Below are positions 16,287-39,392 of a stretch of 39,669 nt of DNA, piece by piece. Below the pieces are notes generated by a model. The model made no database searches and was not told the origin of the DNA. It worked only from the letters and a program-made list of their open reading frames with translations. The DNA is from Chthoniobacteraceae bacterium (lineage in GTDB: Bacteria; Verrucomicrobiota; Verrucomicrobiia; Chthoniobacterales; Chthoniobacteraceae), in NCBI GenBank assembly GCA_947471505.1, contig CANIWM010000058.1:1-39669 (forward strand), given 5' to 3'. The stretch's first letter is position 1, and every line of letters starts with the position of its first letter. A program made the position numbers and the translations under genes.

Positions 16287-16339
16287 ACCTATACATGCGA
16301 AAAAATCCGACAAAACGTATCACTCGGGGCGCAGATATT

Positions 16340-19714: not shown

Positions 19715-20026
19715 GTCTGCGTTGTCATAGAGAGATAGTCATTACCCAGTAAAGCGACGTATCGCAAGGTTTCGTTGCTTCCACGCGCGAATTGCGTGGA
19801 ATCTGCATGGAAATGGCAGCGTCAGTGATTGCCTGTAAGCCCCGTCAGTTCCAACGGTTGGTAGTCGCGTATTCCCCGAGTTGCTTTTCGGCTTCGGTTC
19901 GCTGTCGGAGGTAGGATGTCCCACTGGTCGGTGCTCCCATCCGCCTGTTGGCAACAAACCGGATCACATGGCACAGATCGCCACTCGCCTGTTGCATTCA
20001 GCAGGCGTTCGGGGCTTCACTCAGCC
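19715..20026 (+). other. Spacer upstream of the WYL regulator
   Basis: These 312 bases hold no convincing gene. They contain a perfect 8-base inverted repeat at 19779-19801 and GTAGGA-T-GTCCCAC at 19911-19924, which echoes the candidate operators at 21059 and 23120 but with one base between arms. The promoter of the WYL gene should lie here. Confidence 0.4.
19779..19801. repeat. 8-bp inverted repeat with 7-base spacer
   Basis: TTCCACGC (19779-19786) and GCGTGGAA (19794-19801) are perfect reverse complements around GCGAATT. It lies about 225 bases upstream of the WYL regulator start. It could be an operator or a transcript hairpin; there is no T-run after it. Confidence 0.5.
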
Positions 20027-21055: not shown

Positions 21056-21058
21056 GCG

Positions 21059-21079
21059 GTAGGACCGCGATTGTCCCAC
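21059..21079. promoter_or_regulatory. Candidate WYL operator 1
   Basis: GTAGGAC (21059-21065), seven bases, then GTCCCAC (21073-21079) form an inverted repeat with one mismatch. It lies between the WYL stop and the ARPP-1-like ATG at 21101. The upstream half with its flank, GCGGTAGGAC, recurs exactly in the second site (minus strand, 23134-23143). Confidence 0.45.
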
Positions 21080-21100
21080 CACCGGCGCTAGGGTTCGGGT

Positions 21101-22048: not shown

Positions 22049-22057
22049 CCCACCGCC

Positions 22058-23455: not shown

Positions 23456-25954
23456 ATGACTCCACTTTCCGAGATCGAGAAGAACGAATTACTCCGGCTG
23501 ATCGAAGCTGATCGCCCGCTGCCGGAGCAGTGGCGTGGGCGGCTCTTTCCGGGCGCGGGTCGAAAGGCGGAGATCGGCAAGGAATACCGGCTGGTGTATG
23601 ACGGGAAGCTGACGCGCGAGGAGGTGCTCGCGCAGACGCCTGCTGCACCGTGGCAGTTGGAGCGATCGTTCTGCGCGGAACGGCCGCACGCGGACGGCTG
23701 GCGGAATCTGCTGGTATGGGGCGACAACCTGCTCGCGCTGCGCGAACTGCTGGCCGACCAGCAGGGGCCGAACCGGCTCGGCACGCGCGGGAAGATCAAA
23801 TTGATCTACATCGATCCTCCGTTCGCCACCAAGCAGGACTTCATGAAGGACAAGGAGAAGGCGTATCGTGACAAGGTGCTCGGCGCGCAGTTCATCGAGT
23901 TCCTCCGCCGCCGTCTCATTCTCCTCCGCGAAATCCTCGCCGACGACGGCAGCATCTTCGTCCATTTGGACTGGAAGAAAGGCCACTACCTAAAGGCCAC
24001 ATTGGATGAATTGTTCGGAGAGGAGAATTTCGTGACAGAGATCATCTGGCGCCGAACGACCGCCCATTTTACTGCTGAACGTTTCGCGTTTGTTCACGAC
24101 TCGATTTTCCAATACAGCCGAGCCGGAAAATTTCTTTACCGAAAGCCCGAAAGTAGCCATTCGCGCGAATACCTGGCGGTCAAATACAAGAACCAAGAAG
24201 CAGATGGACGACGTTACCGTCTCAGCGATGCCTCTGGCGCAGGCCAAGGTGAACCGAGAGTTTTTTTCGGAAGGAGGATTTCTCCGCCGACCGGCCGCCA
24301 CTGGCCATCGCAGCACTACATCGATGAAAACTTGGAACAATATGTTCTTGGCGCGGACGGGATGCCGCAGAAAAAATCGTATCTCAAGGGAGCGACTATC
24401 GGTTCGGTCTGGGACGATATTTCACCGATAAATTCACAGGCAGAGGAGCGGTTGGATTATCCAACCCAGAAGCCCGAAGAGTTGCTCGAACGGATCCTTT
24501 CCTCCACCTCCAACGAAGGAGACATCGTGCTCGACTGTTTTGCCGGCAGTGGCACAACTGCGGCAGTAGCAGAGAAGCTGGGCCGGCGTTGGATCGCGAT
24601 GGATTGTGGCAAGCTGGCCATCTACACCGCGCAGAAGCGGTTGTTCTCCCTAACCAAGAGCATCGGCGCTCCAACGAAGGACAACCGCGCAGAGCCGGAG
24701 CGAGTGGAGGATTGGGCAGACCATCTCAAGGGAGCGCCCGGCGTGCTGCTCATCACCGAAAAGGCCCGCAACGGCCAATGTGAGGTGACGCTGGAGTTAC
24801 TCCATGATCTCGCCGCGCTCGCCAGTAAACACGACTTGGTGAAGAAGGGCACGGCGCTGTCGCTCATCTGCCCAGAGGAGAAATTGCGTATTCCCGAGGA
24901 TCAACTGGAGGAACCGGAGGATGCGCCGGGCACCAAGCGCATCGTAATCGAACTGAAGGAGGGCAAGAAGGTCGTGGCCACGGTAGAGTTCCGGATCTCG
25001 CTTATCGCGCCCAAGGACAAGGCGGAAAAGGAGCAGCCGTTACCAGCCAAAGAATTCGCGCTCTTCCGGGCGGGCATCTATGACATGGCCGCCATCAGGA
25101 ACCTGCCGTGGGGGGATTACCGGCCATTTGTCCTGAAACTCTTTGGCGTCCGCGAGCATCCGCACGAGCGCTACGGTTTCGCGCTGGACGGATACAACGG
25201 CACACATTCCACCCTCGTTTGGAATTACCCGGATCATCCCACGCTCACGCTGGATTACGGCTACGTGGACGACCTGCACAAGACATTGCGCGGCAAGCCC
25301 GGTGAGCGCTTCTACGTCATCGCCCCGGTGGTGGCGATGGACTTCGCCGAGGACGAGGTGACACGCCACGAGACGACGTATGTCTTCCTCAAGGTGCCGC
25401 TCTCGGTCCTGCTGCGGCTCATCGAGCGCAAGGTGCCGGCCGCGCTCAAGCAGCCGGCCAAGGAAGAGGACGTGAACGAGGTGATCGACGCCGTGGGCTT
25501 CGACTTCATCTCGCAGCCGCAGGTGGTGTGGAAGGCGAAGGCGGACAGCGGCAAAGACGGGCTGTTCGCCAAGTCCGATTACGTGCTGGAAATTTCCGAA
25601 TTTCGCGCCCGGACGCTGGCCACGGACCCGGAGGATTTTCAAAACTTCGAGACCTTTTCGATGGCGATGGTGGACACGGATTACGATGGGGATGTTTTCC
25701 GCCTGAGCCGGGTGTTCTGGGGCGAGGATGTGCTCAAGGCGGCGGGCGGGCTGGAGAAGGCCGAGCGGCTGGAGTTGCGCGTCTCGGAAGCAGATTTCAC
25801 CGGGAAGCAAATGATGGTGATTCTCTGCGACCGCTACGGAAACGAGAAGGCGTTGAACCTGGAGAAGGGTGACTTCGAGGGCGGGCCGCGCCGGGCGGCA
25901 AAGGCGCCCGCGAAGAAGTTGGCTGCCGTCACGAAAGGGAGGAGCGCGAAATGA
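23456..25954 (+). CDS. Type III-like (Mod) DNA adenine methyltransferase
   Basis: This 832-residue site-specific DNA methyltransferase of the beta class has catalytic motif IV DPPF at 120-123, ahead of SAM-binding motif I DCFAGSGTT at about 360-368, followed by AAVAEKLGRRWIAMD. In between lie FLRRRLILLREILADDGSIFVHLDW and the DYPTQKPEELLERI box, both typical of Mod subunits. It should transfer methyl groups to adenine N6 in a specific sequence. The C-terminal 400 residues are longer than in common Mod proteins and could bind DNA or partners. Its stop overlaps the start of the Res-like gene (ATGA). Pairing with Res matches type III restriction-modification, but the genes that follow point to a larger system. 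Confidence 0.9.
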   Translation: MTPLSEIEKNELLRLIEADRPLPEQWRGRLFPGAGRKAEIGKEYRLVYDGKLTREEVLAQTPAAPWQLERSFCAERPHADGWRNLLVWGDNLLALRELLADQQGPNRLGTRGKIKLIYIDPPFATKQDFMKDKEKAYRDKVLGAQFIEFLRRRLILLREILADDGSIFVHLDWKKGHYLKATLDELFGEENFVTEIIWRRTTAHFTAERFAFVHDSIFQYSRAGKFLYRKPESSHSREYLAVKYKNQEADGRRYRLSDASGAGQGEPRVFFGRRISPPTGRHWPSQHYIDENLEQYVLGADGMPQKKSYLKGATIGSVWDDISPINSQAEERLDYPTQKPEELLERILSSTSNEGDIVLDCFAGSGTTAAVAEKLGRRWIAMDCGKLAIYTAQKRLFSLTKSIGAPTKDNRAEPERVEDWADHLKGAPGVLLITEKARNGQCEVTLELLHDLAALASKHDLVKKGTALSLICPEEKLRIPEDQLEEPEDAPGTKRIVIELKEGKKVVATVEFRISLIAPKDKAEKEQPLPAKEFALFRAGIYDMAAIRNLPWGDYRPFVLKLFGVREHPHERYGFALDGYNGTHSTLVWNYPDHPTLTLDYGYVDDLHKTLRGKPGERFYVIAPVVAMDFAEDEVTRHETTYVFLKVPLSVLLRLIERKVPAALKQPAKEEDVNEVIDAVGFDFISQPQVVWKAKADSGKDGLFAKSDYVLEISEFRARTLATDPEDFQNFETFSMAMVDTDYDGDVFRLSRVFWGEDVLKAAGGLEKAERLELRVSEADFTGKQMMVILCDRYGNEKALNLEKGDFEGGPRRAAKAPAKKLAAVTKGRSAK

Positions 25955-28545
25955 GCCTGCAATTCCGCATCGCCGATCAGGTGTTGAAGGTGGCCGACAA
26001 GCGCGACCTCGTGGAGGCGGTGGTCCACAAGTATGACGCCTTTTTGAATCTGCTCTGCGCCGACCGCTACGCCTTCCAGCGCGACGCGGTGCGCGAAACG
26101 CTGCGTTTCCTCGCGTCGAACAAGTATCGGGATCTCGAAGATTTGGCGAAGGAGAACTGGAGCAACAGTGAAGCCATCCAGCACCGGCACGAGGCCGGCG
26201 TAGATTCCTACCTGGCCCGGATGCCACTCAAGAACCGCAAGGCGGTGTCACTCGATCTCGCGACCGGCACCGGCAAGAGCTACGTGATGTATGGACTGGC
26301 GGCGATTGCGCTGGCCGAGGGATTGGTGGACCAGGTGCTGGTCCTGTGCCCGTCGCTGACCATCGAGGAAGGGCTGCTGGAAAAGTTCACGGCGCTGGCG
26401 GGCAATGGTGAGTTGTCCGGCATCATGCAGGATCTGGGCGCGGCGGTTCCCATTCCCGCCATCAAGCGCGGCAACGAGACGATTCGAGCCGGCGATATTT
26501 GCGTAGAAAACATTCATGCGGTTTATGAGAGCACCGGCTCATCCATCCGCGACAGCTTCAATGGCAAAGGGATGCGCACTCTCGTCCTGAACGACGAGGC
26601 CCACCACCTGTTCAGCCAGCCGGATCGGGCAATGAAGGAGTGGATGAAGTTTTTGCAGGGCGGGGAATTCTGGTTCCAGTTTATCGTGAACGTCACAGGC
26701 ACGCCTTACGTGGAGAACGACTATTTCCCCGATGTCGTTTTCCGCTATGGCCTCAAACAGGCCATCGCCGACGGCGTCGTCAAAAAACCCGATTACAAGA
26801 TCGAGGACACCTACACGGAACACGACTGGCAGAAGACGTACGCCATCCACGCGCAGAACCAAAAGGACTACGGCAAGCATCTCAAGCCGATCTCCATCGT
26901 CGTCACGCAGGAGATTGCCACCTGCGTCGAAGTCTGGCGCGAGCTGGTGGATTTTCTGGTCGAGAAAGAAAAGATCAGCCGCGAGGAGGCGGAACGGAAG
27001 GCGATTTGGGTCACTTCGGGCGTGCCATCCAGCGGCCCCGCCAAGTCGCGCGTGGAGGCGGCTCACATCCCGCGCAACGACAAGGATTCACCTGAGAAAC
27101 GCCGGCAGGAAAACTTGGCGCTGCTCAAGCAAGTGGACGATCCCGCGTGTCCGGTGGAGTGGATTGTCTCGGTGTCCATGCTCACGGAAGGGTGGGACGT
27201 GAAGAACGTGTTTCAAGTGGTCCCGCATGAGTCGCGCGCGTTCAACTCCAAGCTGCTCATCCAGCAAGTGCTCGGTCGTGGCCTCCGCGTGCCGCCCGGC
27301 CTCGCGGCCCAGCCGCGCGTGAAGATTAACAATCACGAGGCATGGTCCCAGGAGATCGCCAATCTGCTCAAGGAAGTGCTGGAAGTGGAGAGCACCCTTT
27401 CGTGGGGATACGATCCACGCCGCAGCGAGTATGTCTTCCCGCTCCACAATCTGCGTTACGAGCCGGAGCAGAAGACGGTGGAGATCAAGCGCGAGCAGGC
27501 GCGCGAACCCGTGGTCAATTTCCGACCACAAGACCGCAAGACCACGGAATATTCCAAATTTTCCGAGAGCGGCACTCTCGCGGTTGAGATTCAGCATCAC
27601 GGGCTCTTTGAAATAAGTGCGGCCGCCAAGTTGTTGCACGCGTTCCTGAGTGGCAAGAGCGAGAAGATCGCCGCAACGTGGCCGAAGAAGCGGATTCGCG
27701 ATTTCATCATCACCCGGCTGAACGCGGCGCACCAGGACGCGACGTTCCTGAGCAAGGAAAACCTGCTGCTCCTGCAGCAGTGCTTCGGCCCGATGTTCCG
27801 TGAGCTCGACAAGGAACATCCCCGCCTCAGCCAGACCGCGAAGGAGATCGTGGCCGTGGATCTGGCCAAGGTGCCGAAGCAGTCGGTTTCTGAGAGCATG
27901 TTGAAAGAGCACGGCGCGCTCTACGGCGTCGAGGGAGACACGAAGGCCTTTGATGGCCACGAAGTTCACCTTTGGGAGCAGTATCAGAAGTTCAGGAAGA
28001 TGTGCGCCGATTACGGTGACGATGCCTCGGACCAGGCCAAGGCCATCGGTTCGCGGATTCAGCAGGTGAATTTGAGCGCCTTCAAGTCGCCGTGGAATGT
28101 TCACTACGCCAGCTACGAGCCGGAACGAAAGTTCTCCGACCTGCTGTTTGCCAACGGTCATTTGTTCGACTCGTTCGTGAAGATGCCCAACACGGGCGGC
28201 TACGCCTTTCCCTATTCCTACAAGCCGGCCAAGGCCGTCAAAACCCATGTGGCCAATGAACATTTCAATCCTGATTTCTTCCTCAAGGTCAGGGATGCCG
28301 AGGACATTCTCGTGGTGGAGGTGAAGATGGATGACGACGACACGAATCGAAACCGGGCCAAGTGTCGCGACGGCCTGAAGCACTTCGAGACGCTGAACGA
28401 ACGGCTGAAGGACGCGGGCGAGCCATGGCGCTACCACTTTTATTTTCTGTCCCCGGACGACTACACCAGCTTCTTCCAGCAGGTGCGCGACAAGACCTTC
28501 GCACCGTGGCGTTCAACGCTCATGCAGGAATTGACCGCCAGATGA
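25951..28545 (+). CDS. Type III Res-like helicase-nuclease
   Basis: This 864-residue superfamily 2 enzyme has Walker A in LDLATGTGKS (K109), DEAH box D215-H218, motif III VTGTP, motif IV-V around WIVSVSMLTEGWDVKNV and motif VI QQVLGRGLRVPPG. Near the C-terminus, P774-D775 and E790-V-K792 (ILVVEVK) form a PD-(D/E)xK nuclease site. ATP-driven translocation plus cleavage is the expected activity, as in type III Res subunits. The start overlaps the Mod stop by four bases, so the two proteins are probably made in fixed proportion and act together. All motifs are intact. Confidence 0.9.
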   Translation: MSLQFRIADQVLKVADKRDLVEAVVHKYDAFLNLLCADRYAFQRDAVRETLRFLASNKYRDLEDLAKENWSNSEAIQHRHEAGVDSYLARMPLKNRKAVSLDLATGTGKSYVMYGLAAIALAEGLVDQVLVLCPSLTIEEGLLEKFTALAGNGELSGIMQDLGAAVPIPAIKRGNETIRAGDICVENIHAVYESTGSSIRDSFNGKGMRTLVLNDEAHHLFSQPDRAMKEWMKFLQGGEFWFQFIVNVTGTPYVENDYFPDVVFRYGLKQAIADGVVKKPDYKIEDTYTEHDWQKTYAIHAQNQKDYGKHLKPISIVVTQEIATCVEVWRELVDFLVEKEKISREEAERKAIWVTSGVPSSGPAKSRVEAAHIPRNDKDSPEKRRQENLALLKQVDDPACPVEWIVSVSMLTEGWDVKNVFQVVPHESRAFNSKLLIQQVLGRGLRVPPGLAAQPRVKINNHEAWSQEIANLLKEVLEVESTLSWGYDPRRSEYVFPLHNLRYEPEQKTVEIKREQAREPVVNFRPQDRKTTEYSKFSESGTLAVEIQHHGLFEISAAAKLLHAFLSGKSEKIAATWPKKRIRDFIITRLNAAHQDATFLSKENLLLLQQCFGPMFRELDKEHPRLSQTAKEIVAVDLAKVPKQSVSESMLKEHGALYGVEGDTKAFDGHEVHLWEQYQKFRKMCADYGDDASDQAKAIGSRIQQVNLSAFKSPWNVHYASYEPERKFSDLLFANGHLFDSFVKMPNTGGYAFPYSYKPAKAVKTHVANEHFNPDFFLKVRDAEDILVVEVKMDDDDTNRNRAKCRDGLKHFETLNERLKDAGEPWRYHFYFLSPDDYTSFFQQVRDKTFAPWRSTLMQELTAR

Positions 28546-28649
28546 ACACTGTCTCGCAAATTCAGGAGGTAATGACCTCGATCTCAACGCCCGCTGCGAG
28601 CTCTCGTCGCCAAAAATCCCAAGTGAACAACCTATGGCCGCAAAAATAA
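28542..28649 (+). CDS. Possible 35-residue coupling peptide
   Basis: This frame starts inside the Res stop (ATGA at 28542-28545) and ends at TAA 16 bases inside the next gene, bridging an 88-base gap. The product, MNTVSQIQEVMTSISTPAAS and onward, has no recognisable domain. Its value may be to carry ribosomes to the next start; AGGAGGT occurs at 28564-28570. Chance is possible. Confidence 0.25.
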   Translation: MNTVSQIQEVMTSISTPAASSRRQKSQVNNLWPQK

Positions 28650-31600
28650 TTCGCTTTAGCGAACCGGTAAACGCCAGTGAGGTCGCCGCCCAGGCCAAAT
28701 GCAAAGCGGCTCTCGACGCTCTCGCTGACCCTGTCCCTTGGATCGTATTCGCCGGCCTCGCTTCATCCTCATCGCCCCTACACCAATCCGACGACTTGGA
28801 TCTCGTGCCAATCGGCCCGCGCGGTGTGTTCTTGATTGAGGTTAAGCATTGGGACGCCGCCTGGATCAACGACAACCGCGCAACTGCCGACGCCGAAGCG
28901 GAAAAACTGACCATCAAAGCCAAGCGGCTCGCCGGTCGTGTCAAAAGGGCGCTCTCCAATACTCCCAAAGTTACCCAGGCGTTTCTGATTACGCGCGAGC
29001 CAGCCGGCCCGAATTTGCCAGCGACGATCCGCGGTGTGCCGGTGTGGACTTTACGCGAGCTCGCCAGGGTGTTTCGCGAGCTCCCCAAAGGCCTCCTTAA
29101 CGAACTGCAGGTAAATCTTCTCGTCGGTTCGTTGGAACCTGCGGTCAAGGTTCAGTTGGACGGCAAGATTCGGCGTATCGCCGCCTACCAGAACTTGGAA
29201 CTCCAGACACCAAAGGAACAGGCGTTCCACCGGATTTACAAAGGCGCTCACCAGCGGACCAAGGAGCGCGTCATCCTCCACCTTTACGATCTGTCAGCCA
29301 GTGAGGATAAGAATCCCTCACGCCAGGCCGAGCGAGAATCGCGTGCATTGCAAATGCTCCAGACCACGAGATTTGTTCCACGCGTTCGGGATACGCTGCG
29401 CGACCTGCCTGAATTCCCCGGCGAACTGTCCTACTTCACGTTGATTGACCCTGGCGCGCCCACCCTTGCCGAGCGGGCTGCCGATGGGGCTTGGACCACG
29501 GCTGACCGAATAGAGTTCGCCGCCAACTGCTGCACGGCACTGCACGACATTCACTCCCTAACCGATCCGGAGGAGGTGAAGATCGTGCATCGCAACCTTT
29601 GCCCGAAGAGCCTGCTTGTCGGCCCGGGTAAAGAGCCAGTTTTCGTTGACTTTGATCTCGCCCGATTGCCGAGCACCGAGACTTTGGGGGACGTTCGTTC
29701 CGCCGATTCGGAGTTCGACGCTCCCGAAGTGCGGGCTGGTGGCCTTACTGCGGCATCGCAACGGAGCGATGTGTTCTCGCTTTGTTCCGCGTTGCTCACA
29801 TTGTTCGCAACCGCCACCGATAAAAAATCTGAGGCGGCCCGCAACGCTTTGCTCACAGGATGCGCCGAGTCGCCCGAATCCCGAGCCTCACTGACAGATA
29901 TTGAACAGGCAATACGTTGCCTACTGCTAGCCTCGGCCGAACCAGATACGCCCTTTGCGCCACCGACCGACGCCGACGTTCCGGCATCGGAATATTGGTC
30001 CGAAGGCGAACTTTTGCCATTCCGCGACATGACTCTCCGCATCGTCAGTCGTTTGGGATCGGGTGGTATCGGCCGAACCTTCAAGGTCGAGCAGGTAGAT
30101 CCGGTCAGCGGCGAGAATTTCGGCACGTTCGTTGCAAAGGTCATGAAGTCTCAGGATTCTGGGCGCGCCGCGCTTCATGCTTACCAACGCGTGCGCAGCC
30201 ATACTACTTCACCCGGTCTATCGGTTGTTTTCGAGACCGCTCGCAATTGGCAGCGGGATCGTGTCGTTGCCCTGTTGAAATGGATCGAAGGCGATTCACT
30301 TGACGGCTTGGCTGGTGTTTTACCCATCGCTGCCGAAGAAGCGGGTTATGAAACGGTCGAAAAAATGCTCATTCGTTGGTGCACGGAGGTGTGTCATTCC
30401 CTCGCGAGCTTGCACGCCCAAGGCCTAGTTCACGGCGATGTCAGTCCCCGCAATTTGATCTGTGATCGTGGCGGACTGACGCTTACGGATTACGACCTCG
30501 TCACGACGGTGGGAAAACAATCCTGGGGCACGGGCGCAACCGCCTATTGCTCACCGGAAGCGCAGCGGCGCGAACCATTGGAACCGTCCGACGATTTCTT
30601 TGCGCTGTCCGCCAGTTTGTTCGAGGTGGCGTTCAATCATCCCGCGTTTTCCAGCCCGCACGGCGCAATGGACAAGGGACACGGCTTGGATTGGCGTGCG
30701 GGCGAGCGTGAATCGCTCCCTAAACTCGCTGAGTTCTTCGCTCAGGCCACACATCCTGATCGCTCTCGCCGCTTTCAGGAAGCCTCTGCCGCGATCAAAG
30801 CCCTTGCTTCGTTCAACGACATCCCCATCACGCCCTCAGAACCAATCGAGATGGAGGTCGTGCGTCGTTCACCACAGCATGTGAAATGGCTGGAATCCCT
30901 GCTACGGATATATCCTGGTTCGCCCCACGGAAACCTTGAGACCCGCGGCCTAGACAGTGAGTTTGCTCTCGCGACCTACGTCGAGACCCCGCTCGAACAA
31001 TCGCTGTTCGATTCTGTCCGCAACCGAACCACGCGTTTGGTTTTGTTGTGCGGCAACGCGGGGGATGGCAAAACCGCGCTGCTTCAGCACTTGGCCGCAA
31101 AATTCGGCATTGCTAGACACCAGTCCGCCGATCGTATTTGGGAAGCTCGAACTCCGGACGGGCTTTTGCTCCGTGCGAATCTTGATGGGTCCGCATCGTT
31201 TCAAGGGCGCAGCGCGAATGAATTGTTGGATGAATTCCTTCAGCCTTTCTTGGACGGTTTGCCTGGAGAAGACATCGCCCATCTGCTGGCCATAAATGAC
31301 GGACGTCTTTACGAATGGCTTGAAAGCCGTGAGCGCACGTCTGGCACCAGCCCTTTCACTCGTGCGCTTCGCGCCTTTCTCGCTCACGACGACGAAGACG
31401 GGGAGCCACTAGCTCACGTTCAGTTCATCAGCCTAAACCATAGATCGCTCGTCGGCGGCCGCACACCTTCAGGCCAGTGGTCAGATGACTTTCTTGATCG
31501 GCTCATCCACCGGCTTTTGGGAGGGGAGAGCGCCCTTCAGAACTGGTCACCTTGTCTGAAATGCGAGGCTTGGGATCGATGCACCGCTGGCCCGAATGCG

Positions 31601-32629
31601 CACCGCCTTTTCGCGGCCGATGACACCCCCCAAGGCCAACTCGGTCAACGGATACGCGCCCGCTTGGCAGAAACGCTTCAGGCGGTTCACCAGCGCGGAC
31701 AAATTCACATCACTACCCGCGAACTGCGTGGCGTGCTCAGCTACGTACTGTTCGGCGTGCATTCCTGCGCGGAACTCCATCAAGACCCTAGTCTGAAACC
31801 CGACCCATTGTGGGACATGCTCTTTTCACCGGTATCACCATATCGCCAAGGCGACCTGTTGCGCGAGATCGCGGCGCTCGATCCCGCATTGGAATCACAT
31901 CCCCAACTTGATCGGTGGCTCATGGGGCGCACCGCGCGTGAGGTTCCCGGTGCCGGCCCAGGCTACCCGGGGCTATGGCGTGATTCCGCCCGTCGTCGTG
32001 CCTATATCGAATGGAGCGAACAGCACCTTGAGGCGCTGACGGGCGACTCCAATTCACTCCCATTGGCGAATGGGGATCACCTTCGCTTCTTCAAGGAGGC
32101 CGCACTCAAGCATGCCGTCGAGAATTCCGACCTCTGCGCCCGGCTCTGTCGTGGTATCTCCCAACTGGAGAGCCTTCCACAGCTGGCCTTGGCGCGCACT
32201 ACTATCGTTCCATTGCGCATCACCCCGCGCACGCCCACGGAAACCTACTTCTGGGTTGAGAAACCGTCGGAGCGCTTTCGGCTCGAAGCCGAATGGCCCC
32301 ACATTCGCGACATCCCGTTGCCGGTGCTACCGCGCCGTCTGAACCTAATTTACCGCAGCGCAAATGGACGCGAAGACGTGTTATCGATGGGTTACGAACT
32401 ATTCCACACGCTCTTGTCGCTGGCTTCGGGCGAGCAATTGAGCGAGCTCCGCTCTGACGACCTCTTTGCTAACCTTGCCATTTTCACTCAACGGCTCGCC
32501 AAGGAAGACGAAGGACACCTTCTCGCATGGAATCCAAAGGTGGATTCGACCTTGTATCGCTTGGGAATTCAACGAAGGGCCGACCGGCAGATTTTGGCGT
32601 GCGAGCCCATCAACATGACAAACACATGA
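28634..32629 (+). CDS. NERD nuclease-pseudokinase-kinase-ATPase fusion protein
   Basis: The product has 1331 residues. The N-terminal NERD nuclease domain shows D54/D56 and E69-V-K71 in LVPIGPRGVFLIEVKHW. A first kinase-like domain (about 190-430) has HRN (319-321) in place of HRD and DFD (339-341), with no clear glycine loop, so it is probably a pseudokinase. A second kinase domain (about 468-735) has GSGGIG (475-480), VAK with K502, HGD at 600-602 with N607, and DYD at 619-621, and looks active. The C-terminal ATPase region carries Walker A GNAGDGKT (807-814) and a possible zinc site C974-x2-C977-x5-C983. NERD-kinase fusions occur in PglW of Pgl/BREX type 2. The P-loop (CGNxGDGKT style) is like DndF/DptF, and the gene order is like the kinase end of MADS. 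Its stop overlaps the next start. Confidence 0.8.
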   Translation: MAAKIIRFSEPVNASEVAAQAKCKAALDALADPVPWIVFAGLASSSSPLHQSDDLDLVPIGPRGVFLIEVKHWDAAWINDNRATADAEAEKLTIKAKRLAGRVKRALSNTPKVTQAFLITREPAGPNLPATIRGVPVWTLRELARVFRELPKGLLNELQVNLLVGSLEPAVKVQLDGKIRRIAAYQNLELQTPKEQAFHRIYKGAHQRTKERVILHLYDLSASEDKNPSRQAERESRALQMLQTTRFVPRVRDTLRDLPEFPGELSYFTLIDPGAPTLAERAADGAWTTADRIEFAANCCTALHDIHSLTDPEEVKIVHRNLCPKSLLVGPGKEPVFVDFDLARLPSTETLGDVRSADSEFDAPEVRAGGLTAASQRSDVFSLCSALLTLFATATDKKSEAARNALLTGCAESPESRASLTDIEQAIRCLLLASAEPDTPFAPPTDADVPASEYWSEGELLPFRDMTLRIVSRLGSGGIGRTFKVEQVDPVSGENFGTFVAKVMKSQDSGRAALHAYQRVRSHTTSPGLSVVFETARNWQRDRVVALLKWIEGDSLDGLAGVLPIAAEEAGYETVEKMLIRWCTEVCHSLASLHAQGLVHGDVSPRNLICDRGGLTLTDYDLVTTVGKQSWGTGATAYCSPEAQRREPLEPSDDFFALSASLFEVAFNHPAFSSPHGAMDKGHGLDWRAGERESLPKLAEFFAQATHPDRSRRFQEASAAIKALASFNDIPITPSEPIEMEVVRRSPQHVKWLESLLRIYPGSPHGNLETRGLDSEFALATYVETPLEQSLFDSVRNRTTRLVLLCGNAGDGKTALLQHLAAKFGIARHQSADRIWEARTPDGLLLRANLDGSASFQGRSANELLDEFLQPFLDGLPGEDIAHLLAINDGRLYEWLESRERTSGTSPFTRALRAFLAHDDEDGEPLAHVQFISLNHRSLVGGRTPSGQWSDDFLDRLIHRLLGGESALQNWSPCLKCEAWDRCTAGPNAHRLFAADDTPQGQLGQRIRARLAETLQAVHQRGQIHITTRELRGVLSYVLFGVHSCAELHQDPSLKPDPLWDMLFSPVSPYRQGDLLREIAALDPALESHPQLDRWLMGRTAREVPGAGPGYPGLWRDSARRRAYIEWSEQHLEALTGDSNSLPLANGDHLRFFKEAALKHAVENSDLCARLCRGISQLESLPQLALARTTIVPLRITPRTPTETYFWVEKPSERFRLEAEWPHIRDIPLPVLPRRLNLIYRSANGREDVLSMGYELFHTLLSLASGEQLSELRSDDLFANLAIFTQRLAKEDEGHLLAWNPKVDSTLYRLGIQRRADRQILACEPINMTNT

Positions 32630-34407
32630 GCGCAAGCGCCAAAGAAATAATCGAGGAGGTGTTCACCAAAGCTGTGGCCGACCAGTTGTGGACGGCAAAT
32701 ACTCTTTTGGTTCTTCCGCTCACGCCGCAGGGGTTCGCTGTTGGCTCGGTCCTCCCAGCGGTCTTTTACATGTGTCGCCGTGCCTGTCGTCGCGGGAAGG
32801 GGCGTTTTCAGCAAACGTTTTCCCCTGCGGAAGGAATGAGAGCGGACATCCATTCAGTGGCCGGAAAACTGTCTCAGGATACTCAGTCTTTCGCAGGATT
32901 CAGCTCAGAGGTAACAAAAGACATACTAGGTGACCTGCTTCTCTGCGACCAATTGGAGAACAAGAGTCATACGGAAGGGCATCGCGAAGAAATCCAGCGT
33001 GCCTTTCCTGTCCATTTTTTTGCGTCGTGGCTGGACTTGCCGCCGTTCGTTGGACACCTCCGTTTCGTCCCCGAAATGATCGTATGTTTGCTAGCCAATC
33101 AGCAAGCAGGACAGAAGCTGTTAGCTACGGCTCCCGGCACCGAAAGCGCATTTCCAGTGGGTCGCTCTCCCGAGAGTAACTTGTTTTTCAGTATTTTTGG
33201 ACGGGGTGTTTCCTTCGGCGCAAACACGGCCAACCTCTGCACCGACACAATCGACGAACAGGCTCCCCTCTCCATTGAGGAGCTACTGATGATCCGTCTA
33301 GCGATGACCTGTGAGGAAGCTCCGGAGACCGCACGGCCATCACACAACGCCGTTCCACACATTCAGAATATATGGCCCGTGTCGCAACGCGCCGCTGCGG
33401 TGTTCAGGGCCGACCTTACCAATTTTCTACAAACCTACGGAAACGCAATCCCAAGGCGATCCATTACCCCGATGCTTGAATCGTTGCTCGGTTTGGGTTT
33501 GCTGTCCATTTACTTGGAGAGTTGTTCCATCGCGGTCGCATGGGAAAGGACCGGCGACATCCCAGTTCCTTCAGCTCAAGTCCCGGTGTCGATTTTCGCC
33601 GATGCGTCGAACGGAAGCGACTCACGTTTACGCGATCTTTCCGAGCAATCGTTCGAGGAATGCGTTCGATTACTGGATCAGTCGGTGATTTCAATGGCGC
33701 AAATCCGCGTTTTGAGTGCGCTCTTGTGGGACGATCCCGATTTAGCCGGCTCCAAACCTAATGGGCCTGATACATCTCCGTGGCTCAGGTTACTCGCTGA
33801 CGTTCGCAAGGGGCGGCATGAAGTATCAGGACTAACATTGCGTGACATAAAGCTCAAGAATGGCCGATTGGCAGAAAAACTCGAAGCCGCGGGCATTGAA
33901 CCTGACGCAATCGATATTCTCCGCTCAACGCATGCGAGTCAGGATCCTGCCCAGACGGCTGCGGAGGCCCTCTGCGCGATGATGGGAGAGAAGCTGCTTC
34001 GAACACATCATTTTAAGTTCTTAGATTCATGCCTGATGGTAAACGAACCGCACGGGCTCGGACGTAAGCGCCGCGTTTCCCGCAATTTTGGCGGTCGCAA
34101 ACGGAAGATGATGGACGTGAGATCAGCGATTCTTTCCAACACGGTCTTGGAAACATTGGTTCATCTCCACTTGGTAGGCCGCCAGGGCGTCCTCTCCTAT
34201 GCCGAGTTCCTCCGTATCTTGCGCGAACGATACGGCATTTGGGTGGATGAGTGCCCCCCGGGTGTCTCCGCATCCCGCGAGGATTTATTGGGCAACCGCG
34301 CGATGCTGGAGCGCCGCCTTCGCGACCTTGGTTTGCTCGTCGGCGTCAACGACGCGGAATTCATGAAACACCTTCGCCCTCGATTCAAAATTAACCTTCG
34401 GCCATGA
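32626..34407 (+). CDS. DndG-like position, unknown protein
   Basis: This gene encodes 593 residues from the ATG that overlaps the previous stop (ATGA at 32626); the longer open frame from 32527 lies inside the upstream gene and is rejected. The product is mostly helical with no catalytic motif that I recognise. Near the C-terminus a basic patch (GLGRKRRVSRNFGGRKRKMM) is followed by a predicted winged-helix-like stretch (ILSNTVLETLVHLHLVGRQG, LSYAEFLRILRERYGIWVDE), suggesting nucleic-acid contact. It lies between an ATPase/kinase gene and a very large HerA-type ATPase gene, the place taken by DndG/DptG in DndFGH and by MAD7 in the MADS order as I remember it. The name is positional, not by homology. 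Confidence 0.65.
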   Translation: MSASAKEIIEEVFTKAVADQLWTANTLLVLPLTPQGFAVGSVLPAVFYMCRRACRRGKGRFQQTFSPAEGMRADIHSVAGKLSQDTQSFAGFSSEVTKDILGDLLLCDQLENKSHTEGHREEIQRAFPVHFFASWLDLPPFVGHLRFVPEMIVCLLANQQAGQKLLATAPGTESAFPVGRSPESNLFFSIFGRGVSFGANTANLCTDTIDEQAPLSIEELLMIRLAMTCEEAPETARPSHNAVPHIQNIWPVSQRAAAVFRADLTNFLQTYGNAIPRRSITPMLESLLGLGLLSIYLESCSIAVAWERTGDIPVPSAQVPVSIFADASNGSDSRLRDLSEQSFEECVRLLDQSVISMAQIRVLSALLWDDPDLAGSKPNGPDTSPWLRLLADVRKGRHEVSGLTLRDIKLKNGRLAEKLEAAGIEPDAIDILRSTHASQDPAQTAAEALCAMMGEKLLRTHHFKFLDSCLMVNEPHGLGRKRRVSRNFGGRKRKMMDVRSAILSNTVLETLVHLHLVGRQGVLSYAEFLRILRERYGIWVDECPPGVSASREDLLGNRAMLERRLRDLGLLVGVNDAEFMKHLRPRFKINLRP

Positions 34408-37400
34408 ATACTGAAATTTTAAGCTGCGCCATGGAACGGCTTCTCGGGCGAGGATCCGACGGAGATATGGCTTTCACCCGCGCATTCTCACGTGATGATA
34501 TACAGGAAGTCCTCGCCGCGGGAATCCGCACGGTTTCAGGGTGGGAGGTTGTTGCGGTTGGATCTAGGAGCGGTGATGGTTGGCTGACCGCTGATCAGGC
34601 CGTCGAATTGCGCGAGAATAAGGGCACGGCCACGTTCCTAATGATTGATGCACACGGCGCCGGCGCTGGCATGGATGGCATTTACAGTGCGGCCCGTGAA
34701 ATCGACGAGAAGACGTTGTTCAAAGAGGCGGTTTCAATCCTGCAGAAAAACACGGAACGCTCCTGGCGGGACTTCGCCGAAGAAGCAATCAAGCGTGCGC
34801 GGCGTTTGGGCGGCAAACGCAACAGCACTTCATTGCGTCAGGAATTCGAGTTTTTTGGACGACTCTCGCAACACCCAGTGGACGGCGGACGGCTAATTCA
34901 CGTGCTCGGCCTTTGGCCGGTCGTGGGCACCACCGCCGCGCAGGCGAGCAGTCTCTTGGCGGAATCTGCGCTGATGGTGGAGAAACTCCTCATGCCCCCG
35001 GCCACCAGCCAGGCTCCTTCGATGCGCATTAGCGGGCTAGTCTTGTCCAATCCTGCCGCCGACCAAATTTCATCGCTTGATCAAGTCCTCCGCAACTCCG
35101 GCGCACAACCGCGATCCGTGGTTCTCGAAGCGGTCGTCGCGTCCACCCAGCTCTGGCTCGGGAATCTTTGTCCGGCTTTCTTGGACAATAGCCTCGCCAA
35201 GGTCGAAATCGCGTCGTGGCGGCGGCCAAACAATAACCTTTGGGCTTGGTCCGGACTTCGGGTAATCCCAGACGAGAGCCTGCCACATCTCATCATCGAT
35301 CCGGAGAACCCAAAAACAAAATTGGAAATCCGGTGGACGACAGAGCCGGAAACTTTGCCTAGAGGCTCGGTAAACTATGAAGTCCGTGTTCTTGCTGGCT
35401 CGGAGGTGCTCGCCTCCCGCCAAATCGAACATAGCGGCAAATCCGAGCAGAAGGTGATTTTCACCCACGAGGACTTTGAGGACTTGGATTCAACGTCAAA
35501 ACTCGAAGCATTCGTCGAAGTTTCGGCGGCGGCCCAAACCAAACTAAAACCAGCCAAAACCGAGGATTTTATCATTACCTTTGGCGAGGCGCCCGTTTCA
35601 CAGCGCGTCAGCAGCGGCGAGATCCAGCGTTGTCTCGCCGACGGGCTGATTCAGGCGGGATCGCGCGAGGATATCGAGGCGTTCCTTGAGCTACGTCAGA
35701 AGGGTGAACAAGCCGTCGCGGATAAGCATGGTTTTGTCACGTGCCGCCTACCTGGCATGCGACGCGGCTTTCGTGTAGAGCGCCCGCGCCTACTCCAAGA
35801 AGTAGAGCGGAACTGGGCACGACATGGCGATGCCAGCATCGGACGCTGGATCATTCGTTGCCGCGCAGACGGCTTTTGGACCGCGCCGCTGGAATTCAAA
35901 TCGATGACTGGCGGTGCAACTGACGAGTCTCTCACAAGATTGCAAGACGTTTCCCGTCGCTTTCGCGACAACACTCTCAAGGCTGCGGGCACTTTGTCCC
36001 GTTTCTATCTCCACGGGCACAGTTCGGCTGCACTCACGGCTGAATACCTGAACGCTTGGCAAACCGCTCTTGAGTCTGGCGATCCTCAGCTTGCTCTGGC
36101 CCATACAATTGAAGTTCAGAATCCGGCTGGCCGAACTACAGGCCTGATCGTCCTACCTTCTCATCCCATGCGGGTTGCCTGGCAAAGTGCCTACGACGAT
36201 CTCGCTTTCCAAATGCGCTTCGAGGAACAAATGCCTTATAAACGTGTTCGCAAGACGCTCGGCTGGCTGGATGCCGCTCATTTTCCGTTCATACTCCCCG
36301 GCCTTCAGCCCGACACCCACTTCGTGTTTGGTGATGTGCTTGGGCTCGCGGCGATTGCGATGGTCGCTGACCGCGACCGCGAGCCAAAATCAGCAATTTC
36401 GACCCTCGCCGCTTGTTTCGCCGGTGACTCGGAACGGATTGTGCCGGGATTGAGTGCCAACTCCGGCGATGCGCTGGCGCGAGAGGTCGCTCACTACCTC
36501 GATTCCCATCCCGAGTGCTCCGTTGTCCGGGTTCACGCACTGCGCCCCGGGGATGCCGCTACGGTTGTCCGTGCGCTCGGCAAAGCACTCGCAGCCGAAC
36601 CTGCTCCTGATGGCGAGCAAGACGATGGTCCATGCCTTCGGGATGTCGCTTACCAGCTAGATATTCACCCTTCTGAAGCCCAGTCCGGTGCTGCAGGAGC
36701 ACACTTGGTGAAAATCAACCAGCGCCGCCGTGCCGGCGTCGCCAGCGTTCCCGCCGTGGATGCGTGGAGTCTTGAATCGCTCAGCCGTGGCGGCGGACGC
36801 ACCTTGCCGCGCCTCCGTTGGGCGCGCCGCGATCCTAACACCCTCAGTCAGTCGGCACACCTTGCCATTGCTTTCGACTCCTTCACATCACACGTCGCCG
36901 TCGAAGAAAGGCGACCCACACCAAGCCCAATTCTCGCTTACGGTTTGGCGGCCAACTTGCAGCGCGTCTTTTCGATGCGTGATTCCCAACCATGCTGGCG
37001 GCTTTTTGTTTCGATCGAACAAGACGGCTTAAAGCTTCCAAATCGCGCGGTTACGGAACGACTTCAGAAGGTCCAAAACGCCATCGCCGCCGCCTCAGCG
37101 CGGTGGGCGGGCACTGAGAATTCCCAGCCGATCATACTGACCATCCCTTCCGGCGATGACGTTGAGATGTTGGATAAACTCCACCGCCTTTGCGATTGGG
37201 TGGTGACCGTGGATCGCAATGCCGGCGTGGAGTACTTCGATTCCCCTCGCTCGTCTCCCGCCATTTACGACGCCTACCTGATTGACGCCGTACCAGAGCG
37301 CGATGACCTAGGGTGTTTGCAGATGATTACCTCTACAGCGCATTTCGACGAAGTGCGCCACCTGCTCGATCAAACGCTTGCGCTTATGGGCCTAAGTGGA

Positions 37401-39392
37401 TCGATGCGTAATTGCGAGTATTTGCTGGGGCAACTCAAAGGCCTGAGCGGAAGGCTCGCGATGCGCTTGGCTGCGGGGGGCGACGACTTGCCGGCAAAAC
37501 GTGTCGGCGCGGAACTGGTCGCCCTGTCTCTTGTTCGAGCCAATTGTCTCAAGCGCGAGGTCGAATCGAACTGTTGGTTACCGCTGTCATCCGGTTTCCT
37601 TGTTCCCTTGGATGACGTGCGCGAACTTGTGCCGGCAGAGACTTTGGAGGAGGCCTCAGAGTCAGCCGAGGGCGGCAACGCCAGCAAGGACGATTCTAGG
37701 CGCGCCGACTTACTATTTGTCTCAGTGGTGCCTAAAGGACGCCTCCAATTTAGATTTGTCGAAGTAAAGTATCGTCGGCATCTCGCCATGGCCCGCGCGG
37801 CGATGCTGGTTAGTTCTGTGCTCGAACAAACGAGCAGCACCCGCACCCGTTGGATGGATTGGTTTTTCGGCACTTCTCTGAAACCTTCTGAACGCGCCAT
37901 TCGAGCCGGACGCCTCGTCCGGACGCTCCGATTTTACGCCGACAAAGCCCGCCGCCATCATCTCGAAGAATCGATCTACAATCGCGCATGCGAAGAGCTG
38001 GACCGCCTCCTCCGCGAACCCATTGACTACGAACCTAACGTCGCCGAGCGCTCGGACCGCGCATTCATTTTTTGTCCCGATTTCACGCCAACGAACCCAG
38101 AAGAACTGTTCCCAGGCTTAGATGAAGAATGTCGCGTCTGGCTCTTCGGCCCTGACACGTTACCAGATAAGCCGATCGAGATCGCAGATGCGGCGCAACC
38201 GCCACCGACACCCGATCTTTCGCCGGAGAGCACGAGCCCGGCAACTGCGCCATCCGCGCCAATGGCGGCTGCCAAAACGGAAACGGTACCCGGTGCTTCA
38301 GAAATTTCCATCGCCGCTCAGATCGCCCCGTCAGCAAAAGCGCAGCCTGGAGCGCCAGTAGTGCCGCTCGGTATTGCGCGCGGCGGACAACCTGTAAACT
38401 GGTCGCCTTCCATCAATAGCAATCCCCATTTAATGATTGCTGGACTCCCAGGTATGGGCAAAACGACCTGCCTCATCAACATCTGCAAGCAATTGGTCGC
38501 AGGAAACGTCCAGCCCATTATCTTCTCCTATCACGACGATATCGACGACAAACTTTCGAGTGAGTTCACCAATTTGGCTTGTAGTGATGGAAGAAGTTTG
38601 GGCTTCAACCCAATGCGCGTGACGCATGATGGTCCGTTAGCTCACGTTGAGAGTGCAGGACAGTTACGCGACATCTTTGCCGCGATCTTCCCAGACCTCG
38701 GTGATTTGCAACTCGAGCAGCTTCGAGGAGCCATCAAAGCCAGCTACCAGGAACAGGGTTGGGGAAACGGCCCAGCCGCTGGTTTACAGCCGCCGCAATT
38801 CCGCCGTTTTGTCGAACTTCTGCGGCAGCAGGAGCGGCCAGACACCCGGACACAGACACTCCTAGCCCGCCTTTCGGAGCTAGACGACTTCGAGTTTTTC
38901 CGAGGCGAACAAGGTGCGAGCAGTCTGCTTGATTCCACATGCCCCCAGATATTGCGCGTCCACGCTTCTAAGAGTGACGCCATTCAACGAGCCTACGCGA
39001 GCTTCGCCCTCTACAGCATTTACCAGGATATGTTCCGGCGTGGCCGGCCCGATCGGATAACTCATGCGATCATCTTCGACGAGGCACACCGTGCCGCAAA
39101 ACTGAAACTCATTCCGACCATGGCCAAAGAATGTCGCAAATACGGTCTCGCGATGATAGTAGCCTCACAAGAGGCCAAAGACTTTGATTCCAGCCTCTAT
39201 TCAGCAATAGCCAATTACCTAATCCTGCGCGTCACCGATCAGGATGCTAAAACTCTTGCACGCAACGTCGCTCCTTCGGAAATTGAACGCCGCACAGCGG
39301 ACCGCCTTAAGATGCTGCCGAAGTTCGAAGCTATGTTTTTCTCCGAAGCTTATAGGCAGCCCGTGCATTTGGCTTTGACCCAAGGGTTCTAA
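34404..39392 (+). CDS. DndH-like HerA/FtsK-type ATPase, 1662 residues
   Basis: This is a giant protein with a C-terminal motor: Walker A GLPGMGKT (1347-1354) in MIAGLPGMGKTTCLINICK, Walker B IIFDEAH with D1559-H1562, and a HerA-like end (MIVASQEAKDFDSSLYSAIANYLILR). About 1300 residues come before it; a segment near 1100 (LLFVSVVPKGRLQFRFVEVKYRRH) resembles a nuclease-like beta strand-E-x-K but I cannot confirm it. A proline/alanine/threonine-rich linker lies at about 1270-1320. Size, C-terminal position of the motor and place as last gene match DndH/DptH (about 1700 residues), and also the ATPase at the end of MADS. The start overlaps the previous stop (ATGA). The likely role is DNA translocation in attack or sensing. 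Confidence 0.85.
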   Translation: MNTEILSCAMERLLGRGSDGDMAFTRAFSRDDIQEVLAAGIRTVSGWEVVAVGSRSGDGWLTADQAVELRENKGTATFLMIDAHGAGAGMDGIYSAAREIDEKTLFKEAVSILQKNTERSWRDFAEEAIKRARRLGGKRNSTSLRQEFEFFGRLSQHPVDGGRLIHVLGLWPVVGTTAAQASSLLAESALMVEKLLMPPATSQAPSMRISGLVLSNPAADQISSLDQVLRNSGAQPRSVVLEAVVASTQLWLGNLCPAFLDNSLAKVEIASWRRPNNNLWAWSGLRVIPDESLPHLIIDPENPKTKLEIRWTTEPETLPRGSVNYEVRVLAGSEVLASRQIEHSGKSEQKVIFTHEDFEDLDSTSKLEAFVEVSAAAQTKLKPAKTEDFIITFGEAPVSQRVSSGEIQRCLADGLIQAGSREDIEAFLELRQKGEQAVADKHGFVTCRLPGMRRGFRVERPRLLQEVERNWARHGDASIGRWIIRCRADGFWTAPLEFKSMTGGATDESLTRLQDVSRRFRDNTLKAAGTLSRFYLHGHSSAALTAEYLNAWQTALESGDPQLALAHTIEVQNPAGRTTGLIVLPSHPMRVAWQSAYDDLAFQMRFEEQMPYKRVRKTLGWLDAAHFPFILPGLQPDTHFVFGDVLGLAAIAMVADRDREPKSAISTLAACFAGDSERIVPGLSANSGDALAREVAHYLDSHPECSVVRVHALRPGDAATVVRALGKALAAEPAPDGEQDDGPCLRDVAYQLDIHPSEAQSGAAGAHLVKINQRRRAGVASVPAVDAWSLESLSRGGGRTLPRLRWARRDPNTLSQSAHLAIAFDSFTSHVAVEERRPTPSPILAYGLAANLQRVFSMRDSQPCWRLFVSIEQDGLKLPNRAVTERLQKVQNAIAAASARWAGTENSQPIILTIPSGDDVEMLDKLHRLCDWVVTVDRNAGVEYFDSPRSSPAIYDAYLIDAVPERDDLGCLQMITSTAHFDEVRHLLDQTLALMGLSGSMRNCEYLLGQLKGLSGRLAMRLAAGGDDLPAKRVGAELVALSLVRANCLKREVESNCWLPLSSGFLVPLDDVRELVPAETLEEASESAEGGNASKDDSRRADLLFVSVVPKGRLQFRFVEVKYRRHLAMARAAMLVSSVLEQTSSTRTRWMDWFFGTSLKPSERAIRAGRLVRTLRFYADKARRHHLEESIYNRACEELDRLLREPIDYEPNVAERSDRAFIFCPDFTPTNPEELFPGLDEECRVWLFGPDTLPDKPIEIADAAQPPPTPDLSPESTSPATAPSAPMAAAKTETVPGASEISIAAQIAPSAKAQPGAPVVPLGIARGGQPVNWSPSINSNPHLMIAGLPGMGKTTCLINICKQLVAGNVQPIIFSYHDDIDDKLSSEFTNLACSDGRSLGFNPMRVTHDGPLAHVESAGQLRDIFAAIFPDLGDLQLEQLRGAIKASYQEQGWGNGPAAGLQPPQFRRFVELLRQQERPDTRTQTLLARLSELDDFEFFRGEQGASSLLDSTCPQILRVHASKSDAIQRAYASFALYSIYQDMFRRGRPDRITHAIIFDEAHRAAKLKLIPTMAKECRKYGLAMIVASQEAKDFDSSLYSAIANYLILRVTDQDAKTLARNVAPSEIERRTADRLKMLPKFEAMFFSEAYRQPVHLALTQGF

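What the first reader, a model, noticed from the sequence alone, without database searches (positions are those of the whole stretch)
23456..39392. Hybrid defence operon: type III Mod-Res plus kinase/ATPase module resembling DndFGH and MADS
Seen: five large genes on one strand, joined by ATGA overlaps at 25951, 32626 and 34404 and one 88-base gap, encoding Mod, Res, a NERD-kinase-ATPase fusion, a 593-residue protein and a 1662-residue HerA-type ATPase. Known: DndFGH consists of an ATPase, a mid-sized protein and a giant HerA-like protein, and needs DndABCDE; MADS couples a type I-like methylation module to a kinase and ATPases; PglW carries NERD plus kinase. Inference: a DndFGH/MADS-like effector has been paired with a type III-like Mod-Res module as its marking arm. 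I know of no described system with exactly this set.
Basis: partly seen in the sequence, partly recalled or inferred. Interest (0 to 1): 0.88.

Follow-up and report, generated by a model that had tools for sequence, protein, structure and literature searches.

The report
Two DNA-restriction modules side by side
A bacterial DNA stretch carries two apparently complete anti-virus DNA-cutting systems next to each other, a common methylate-and-cut pair and a rarer three-protein machine with protein-kinase parts; close relatives show each of them without the other beside it, so they are probably neighbours rather than one new machine, though a link between them is not ruled out.

Summary
The five genes exist as described. 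Genes 3-5 form a DndFGH-class module: a DndF with NERD, dead-kinase and live-kinase domains in front (a fusion published in 2024), a protein with the DndG fold (model against solved DndG: Z 18.8, next row 4.7), and a DndH-like giant whose end matches solved DptH. MAD6-7-8 of MADS are gene-by-gene homologues on a separate branch. Genes 1-2 are an intact type III-like Mod-Res pair.

Of 60 relatives found by gene 3, one has this Mod-Res upstream; one more has a distantly related pair. DNA methyltransferases were seen upstream in 6 of 40 loci. One close relative's homology starts at the gene 3 start codon; a same-genus genome has Mod-Res with no F-G-H beside it. Yet the five-gene block is shared with a genome of another family, and all 8 readable MADS-side loci carry linked methylase and S-like genes. 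Best reading: two restriction modules, sporadically joined; a shared methyl mark stays possible (about 0.25).

Extra lead: phosphorothioation genes, not found in the host genome, occur in 18 of 52 genomes with this module against 13 of 198 background genomes.

The parts
23456..25954 (+). Mod: beta-class N6/N4 DNA methyltransferase, 832 aa; DPPF motif at residues 120-123 ahead of the SAM-binding motif DCFAGSGTT (about 360-368); long C-terminal region
   Evidence: (PF01555, 2.7e-45)
25951..28545 (+). Res: SF2 (ResIII) helicase with C-terminal PD-(D/E)xK-type nuclease signature (D775, E790, K792 by count), 864 aa; overlaps Mod by ATGA
   Evidence: (PF04851)
28546..28633 (.). 88-base spacer between Res and gene 3; homology to the relative L012 (no Mod-Res upstream) begins at 28633, homology to L081 (Mod-Res without F-G-H beside it) ends at 28529
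28634..32629 (+). F: DndF-class protein, 1331 aa: NERD nuclease domain (D56, E69, K71), pseudokinase (HRN, residues 319-321), active-type kinase (K502, D602, D619), DptF/SspF P-loop core (GNAGDGKT 807-814, INDGR, Cys 974/977/983)
32626..34407 (+). G: DndG-fold protein, 593 aa
   Evidence: (MAD7 model, 107.7 bits, below cut-off 410)
34404..39392 (+). H: DndH-class protein, 1662 aa: methyltransferase fold without a [NDS]PP[YFW] motif (about residues 655-979), PD-(D/E)xK (D1102, E1120, K1122), HerA ATPase (Walker A 1347-1354, DEAH 1559-1562, R1578, Q1589)
   Evidence: (7es4 DptH, 1.6e-18)

Best explanation
The locus is a composite of two self-sufficient restriction modules. (1) Mod-Res: Mod methylates a host sequence; Res, with its own helicase motor and nuclease, cuts unmethylated DNA as type III enzymes do. 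(2) F-G-H: a DndFGH-class machine. G (and H's methyltransferase-like region) binds DNA, H's HerA motor moves along or pumps it, and H's PD-(D/E)xK domain cuts or nicks it. F is the sensor and regulator: a nucleotide-binding P-loop core fused to NERD, a dead kinase and a live kinase that may serve as activity gate or back-up effector. In this host the two probably work in parallel. Shown here: homology, fold of G, active-site conservation, gene order, separability. Inferred: DNA cutting, sensing, order of events, phage defence, independence in action.
For: F-G-H is one unit: of 60 relatives brought in by the F core, G is present in 55 and H in 51, and each of the 9 loci that lack one or both stops at a contig end; order G-H-F in 2. 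Active sites: NERD D56 and K71 47 of 47; first kinase catalytic Asp 0 of 47 (Asn 33); second kinase Asp 42 of 47; three Cys 47 of 47; H PD-(D/E)xK residues 31-32 of 34, ATPase residues 34 of 34. G fold = DndG; H C-terminus = DptH. Separability: this Mod-Res upstream in 1 of 60; DNA methyltransferases seen upstream in 6 of 40 loci with more than 3.5 kb upstream, 4 of them co-directional; genomes holding L010 and L012 (F 80 and 77% identical) and G066 gave no Res match; L012 homology starts at the F start, L081 homology ends at the Res end; G612 (same genus) and G439 have Mod-Res without F-G-H in the stretches read.
Against: Within the stretches compared, the window and L009, whose genome is placed in another family, match over the five-gene block (71-83% protein identity) and not in the DNA upstream of it: moved or kept as a block. 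Only 277 bases of window lie beyond H, so that side is barely tested. A distantly related Mod-Res stands before F-G-H in L041 and type I R-M genes in L018. On the MADS side N6 methylase and S-like genes are linked in 8 of 8 readable loci. No DndC or SspD match in the host genome, so the module has no known phosphorothioate mark there and might use Mod's.
Confidence: 0.62

Rival explanations
1. One coupled system: Mod methylation is the self mark read by F-G-H, Res being a second nuclease. F-G-H would be a mark-agnostic restriction machine that has been plugged into phosphorothioation (Dnd, Ssp), type I-like methylation (MADS) and here type III-like methylation.
For: Five-gene block shared with L009 while the DNA upstream of it is not; separate Mod-Res + F-G-H in L041; MADS side linked to methylase and S-like genes in 8 of 8 readable loci, and in L119 these genes lie between G and H; no DndC or SspD match in the genomes of the window, L009, L041 or L018; a review reports that DndFGH can be toxic without its modification genes (PMC12707154, passages).
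Against: In 34 of 40 relatives no DNA methyltransferase was seen among the upstream genes (Pfam lists capped, supplemented by motif search). Very close F-G-H (L010, L012) in genomes with no Res match (Mod was not searched there). Mod-Res has its own nuclease signature and stands alone in the stretches read of G612 and G439. An 88-base gap separates the modules although the other three junctions overlap.
Confidence: 0.25
2. F-G-H depends on a DNA phosphorothioate mark supplied in trans, as canonical DndFGH/SspFGH does; in the window it is idle or uses another mark.
For: DndC (over cut-off) or SspD (E below 1e-50, a line I drew after seeing the scores) in 18 of 52 tested genomes with window-type F-G-H, against 13 of 198 Acidobacteriota background genomes (Fisher p 1e-6). 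In 21 of 22 fetched stretches around those genes, several short, no Ssp-, MADS- or window-type F-G-H was seen.
Against: 34 of 52 genomes have neither gene at these thresholds, the window's own (96.7% complete, no match at E 0.001) and its nearest relatives among them. Background from one phylum; defence-rich genomes may carry more of everything; distant canonical DndFGH could be missed by tblastn.
Confidence: 0.08
3. Not a working defence locus: decayed, or serving another role such as plasmid or DNA maintenance.
For: No functional test exists; H is interrupted or split in some relatives (L042, L049); 5 of 47 F lack the second kinase's catalytic Asp.
Against: All five window frames are open, active-site residues are kept across relatives of many phyla, and R-M genes, integrases and two conjugative plasmids occur among the surroundings.
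Confidence: 0.05

Closest known systems
DndFGH (standalone form; Rakesh, Aravind and Krishnan 2024, PMC10853773)
   Same: Three adjacent genes; DndF P-loop core with ND motif and Zn-type cysteines, which that paper already describes fused to NERD plus inactive and active kinases; DndG fold; DndH plan of inactive methyltransferase, REase and HerA; often without the full DndABCDE set.
   Different: Scores below NCBIfam's DptF cut-off (22 against 50 bits); beside a type III-like Mod-Res, a linkage I did not find in the sections and passages read.
MADS, proteins MAD6-MAD7-MAD8 (names from PADLOC and NCBIfam models)
   Same: Gene-by-gene homologues in the same order: NERD-kinase-P-loop, DndG-like, DndH-like.
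   Different: The MADS-side loci form a separate, fully supported branch and have linked N6 methylase and S-like genes in 8 of 8 readable loci; the window has neither and scores far below the MAD6 and MAD7 cut-offs.
SspFGH
   Same: Same three-gene class; PADLOC SspF and SspG models hit window F and G.
   Different: SspF in L120 is 635 aa, without room for NERD and kinases, and sits with SspBCD.
Type III restriction-modification (Mod-Res)
   Same: Beta-class methyltransferase followed by SF2 helicase with PD-(D/E)xK signature.
   Different: Mod's best PADLOC model is a type II methyltransferase; recognition site and translocation untested.
PglW / BREX type 2
   Same: NERD + inactive + active kinase arrangement (PMC12839542, passages).
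   Different: Followed here by a DptF core; no PglZ or BrxC model among the NCBIfam hits of the operon.

Membership tests
DndFGH class (architecture as in PMC10853773) | F, G and H as three adjacent genes | tested here: met
DndFGH class (architecture as in PMC10853773) | DndF core: P-loop with ND motif, lid with optional Zn site | tested here: met
   Sequence level only: P-loop Lys 47 of 47, Asn888 47, Asp889 43, three Cys 47. The P-loop and INDGR stretches were also the fetch patterns, so their conservation is partly by selection; the core was not folded
DndFGH class (architecture as in PMC10853773) | DndG fold | tested here: met
   7exx: Foldseek E 2.7e-5, the one match under 0.001; Z 18.8, 406 residues, rmsd 6.6, next row Z 4.7
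DndFGH class (architecture as in PMC10853773) | DndH: inactive methyltransferase, REase, HerA/FtsK | tested here: met
   methyltransferase-fold rows, Z up to 11.4; Foldseek itself was weak; [NDS]PP[YFW] in 0 of 34 H
DndFGH class (architecture as in PMC10853773) | DndH: SWI2/SNF2 C-domain, HTH, two beta-sandwiches, TRDs | tested here: inconclusive
   model mean pLDDT 80.7 with a poor N-terminus; no convincing Foldseek match for these parts
Canonical Dpt/Dnd | DptF model TIGR03238 over its curated cut-off | tested here: not met
   22.1 bits, cut-off 50
Canonical Dpt/Dnd | phosphorothioation genes in the genome | tested here: not met
   no DndC or SspD match at E 0.001 in the host genome; other dnd genes not searched
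MADS | MAD6, MAD7, MAD8 models over cut-off | tested here: not met
   MAD6 177.6 (cut-off 460), MAD7 107.7 (410); no NCBIfam MAD8 hit, PADLOC mad8 hit on H without a cut-off
MADS | linked HsdM-like (MAD2) and S-like (MAD5) genes | tested here: not met
   the neighbouring genes are N6_N4 Mod and ResIII Res
Type III R-M | Mod-Res pair with beta-class methyltransferase, SF2 motor and PD-(D/E)xK signature | tested here: met
Type III R-M | asymmetric site, two-site ATP-dependent cutting | not testable with these tools
   needs biochemistry or long-read methylation data
BREX | PglZ and BrxC in the locus | tested here: not met
   no PglZ or BrxC model among the NCBIfam hits of the seven proteins scanned (only PglW and a weak BrxF P-loop hit, both under cut-off)

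The most novel reading that the evidence does not exclude
DndFGH-class complexes are general-purpose restriction machines that can read different self marks: phosphorothioate (Dnd, Ssp), type I-like methylation (MADS) and, here and separately in Xinfangfangia, methylation by a type III-like Mod. To my knowledge the locus would be the first case of the last kind, with Res and H as two nucleases sharing one mark.
Probability: 0.23. Interest if true: 0.78.

Novelty: new variant of a known kind. Interest (0 to 1): 0.46.

Why it matters
It places MAD6-7-8, DndFGH and a widespread F-G-H form with kinases in one comparative frame and indicates that the last usually travels without a linked modification gene, which sharpens an open question: how does such a complex tell self from non-self? 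Loci with a linked Mod, loci without one, and genomes with unlinked phosphorothioation genes make a ready set for a direct test.

Tried and rejected
Considered and rejected: BREX/Pgl membership. Considered and rejected: WYL-ARPP-1-DUF932 genes upstream as part of the system (WYL and DUF932 had no tblastn match at 1e-4 in the loci held then; ARPP-1 only about 27% in L009 and L037). Timing block transfer by housekeeping identity failed: no rpoB match in the L009 genome, and AlaRS matches are fragmentary (60-79% for that genome), no better or worse than the block. The promoter/terminator scan found nothing above shuffles, so whether the 88-base gap holds a promoter is unknown. Foldseek with the H model: its only two matches under E 0.001 are spliceosomal chains of low probability, then weak methyltransferase folds; BpuSI did not appear among the rows shown. 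PDB sequence search with the G profile found nothing relevant. The first tree fell back to a quick method and was replaced by a careful one without three long-branch rows, L119, L120 and L062; F cores under 380 residues, L012's among them, were left out of both. The family tallies show 25 families each, so I added a motif search of all ORFs (amino-methyltransferase and C5 signatures) and a direct scan of seven proteins; this confirmed the six upstream methyltransferases, dismissed L011 and L062, and revealed one downstream in L040 that the tally had not shown. Paper searches brought up no description of Mod-Res + F-G-H in the titles, abstract starts and the passages I opened; the original MADS paper was not seen (recalled only), and subscription papers and supplements were not searchable.

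Full report
WHAT IS THERE. Five co-directional ORFs lie exactly as reported. Gene 1 has PF01555 and gene 2 PF04851, with methyltransferase motifs in beta-class order and, in Res, a P-loop, DEAH box, GRGLR and a C-terminal PDFF...EVK nuclease signature, seen in closely similar form in relatives at 83, 68 and 41% identity (the fourth relative, L041, at 22%, does not align there). Gene 3 scores with MAD6, PglW, SspF and kinase models; gene 4 with MAD7 and SspG; gene 5 with mad8 and DndH. The window is the whole of contig 58 of a 6.07 Mb, 96.7% complete genome. It is in the same class as the genome of L009, titled uncultured Verrucomicrobia subdivision 3 bacterium.

GENES 3-5 ARE A DndFGH-CLASS MODULE. 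One scan of the genome collection (one genome for each of 84,980 species) with the DndF core gave 60 loci, 42-84% identical, with record titles from more than 15 phyla. The scan used two peptide patterns, so conservation of those two motifs is partly by selection. F-G-H is uncommon: the G protein matched in 4 of 387 genomes of the host's phylum, and the G profile in 6 of 398 Pseudomonadota, MADS- and Ssp-type relatives included. Of the 60 loci G was found in 55 and H in 51; the 9 with a miss end at a contig end. Two loci have the order G-H-F (L055, L068). Across 47 aligned F, two of them MADS-type, the NERD residues are D56 47 of 47, E69 45 (D in 2) and K71 47. The first kinase has the catalytic Asp in 0 of 47 (Asn 33, Ala 8). 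The second has K502 in 41, D602 in 42 and D619 in 43; five F lack D602. Three cysteines of a Zn-like site are in all 47. Across 34 H the PD-(D/E)xK residues are kept in 31-32 and the HerA Walker, Arg and Gln residues in 34. The G model (50 sequences, pLDDT 93.4) has one significant PDB match, DndG 7exx, Z 18.8 over 406 residues, next row 4.7. The H profile matches DptH 7es4 at 1.6e-18. The H model of residues 50-1245 (pLDDT 80.7) contains a methyltransferase fold at about H residues 655-979, and none of 34 H has the catalytic [NDS]PP[YFW]. This is the DndH plan described in PMC10853773 (abstract, sections 12, 18, 19, 21, 22, 25 and passages read). That paper already reports DndF fused to wHTH, NERD, inactive and active kinases, and gives 316 taxa with all eight dnd genes against 1798 with DndFGH. 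The SWI2/SNF2, beta-sandwich and TRD parts of H were not confirmed.

RELATION TO MADS. Homologues of the three genes in L008 stand behind genes matching mad2, mad3 and mad5; F, G and H align with the window's at 22-24% identity. Nine MADS-side loci were collected from the phylum, plasmid and Pseudomonadota searches. Eight can be read for neighbours and all eight have a linked N6 methyltransferase and an S-like gene, by annotation, tblastn or Pfam (L086). The ninth, L007, is cut off upstream. In L119 the order is F-G-M-S-H and F (643 aa) has no room for NERD and kinases. In the careful tree (69 rows) the MADS side (8 rows, L119 left out as a long branch) and the window side (61 rows) are separated with 100/100 support; the root is a midpoint, so which is older is not shown.

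IS MOD-RES PART OF IT? Mostly no. tblastn finds this Res in 1 of 60 loci, L009, and Mod similarity in three, L009, L041 and L068. Among 40 loci with more than 3.5 kb upstream, 139 upstream ORFs of 250 aa or more were scanned. DNA methyltransferases appear in six loci, each confirmed by a direct hit: L009, L041, L068, L036, L018 and L038; those of L036 and L038 lie on the opposite strand. A motif search of the same ORFs found no further one. The other upstream families shown are mostly transporters, metabolic enzymes and some mobile genes. Downstream, L040 has one DNA methylase-like gene on the opposite strand, not visible in the capped tally of 56 ORFs from 31 loci; one plasmid copy, L085, has two methyltransferase genes downstream. 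The window's Res matches something in 84 of 384 genomes of the class, but near full length or above 37% identity over long stretches only in the host and three others: G571 (the L009 genome, 83%), G612 (same genus, 68%) and G439 (38-47%). In G612 and G439 Mod-Res stands without F, G or H in the stretches read, 19.9 and 12 kb. Genomes holding L010, L012 and G066 have no Res match. Nucleotide comparison: L012 matches from window 28633 onward, the F start; G612 matches from inside Mod to 28529, the Res end; L009 matches from 23576 to 39367, and the rest of its 21.7 kb does not match the window. So there are two modules with sharp edges.

WHAT SPEAKS FOR COUPLING. The block is shared whole between two families of the class (G000 in f1, G571 in f18), Mod 78, Res 83, F 82, G 71, H 81%. 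L041 (Xinfangfangia) has a distantly related Mod-Res, 30% and 22% identical, before F-G-H with a 118-aa ORF between, and sits in the tree beside L084, which has no methyltransferase annotated in the stretch shown: most simply two separate joinings. L018 has type I M, S and R genes upstream. The host genome has no DndC or SspD match, nor do those of L009, L010, L012, L041 and L018.

PHOSPHOROTHIOATION IN TRANS. The SspD line is mine, drawn after seeing the gap in scores; SspD matches at E 0.001 also occur in 7 of 14 control genomes. In 199 Acidobacteriota the numbers are 7 and 8, together 14, or 13 of 198 without the centre genome, which itself bears F-G-H. Fisher p 1e-6; for Acidobacteriota alone 4 of 8 against 13 of 198, p 0.002. 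Of 22 stretches fetched around these genes (5-20 kb, several cut by contig ends) one, L158, shows SspFGH at this sensitivity. Defence-rich genomes could explain this; it is a lead only.

MECHANISM. From the anatomy: G and H bind DNA, HerA moves it, H cuts, F senses and gates; Mod-Res restricts on its own. The published statements that DndFGH nicks and translocates (PMC11662687, abstract start in the listing), and that it can be toxic without its modification genes (PMC12707154, passages), fit but were not tested for this clade.

VERDICT. Observation confirmed. Interpretation partly supported: the effector is DndFGH/MAD6-8-type as guessed, but a linked marking arm is usually not seen, and Mod-Res here is most likely a separate R-M system next door.

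Noticed in passing
L039 11686-19412 and L026 11734-15437: G is tandemly repeated: four G genes in Thioalkalivibrio sp. HK1 (54-86% identical) and two in a Caldilineaceae genome (94%), between F and H. Suggests G is a diversifying recognition subunit.
   Followed up: partly
L119 7907-19901: MADS-side locus with the methyltransferase and S-like genes between G and H, and an F of 643 aa, too short for NERD and kinases.
   Followed up: partly
genomes of L014-L017, L025-L028, L033-L035, L038, L043, L045-L047, L054 and G066: DndC or SspD genes are over-represented in genomes with window-type F-G-H (18 of 52 against 13 of 198).
   Followed up: partly
window 19916-23032: WYL-domain regulator, ARPP-1 protein and DUF932 protein on the same strand just upstream of Mod; ARPP-1 also upstream in L009 and L037.
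   Followed up: partly
window 3034-6000 and 15087-16313: Two further protein kinases (988 and 408 aa) in the same contig, with two LRR proteins at 8299-10389 and 12843-15068.
   Followed up: no
L055 3223-11720 and L068 7614-11790: Gene order G-H-F instead of F-G-H; the F ORFs are short (582 and 644 aa), so NERD and kinases seem to be missing, and in L068 the H ORF is only 244 aa, the ATPase end.
   Followed up: no
L042 13560-21133: H split by two genes on the opposite strand, looks like an insertion.
   Followed up: no
L085 20906-25127: On a conjugative Rhizobium plasmid F-G-H is followed by two DNA methyltransferase genes and a phospholipase D family gene.
   Followed up: no
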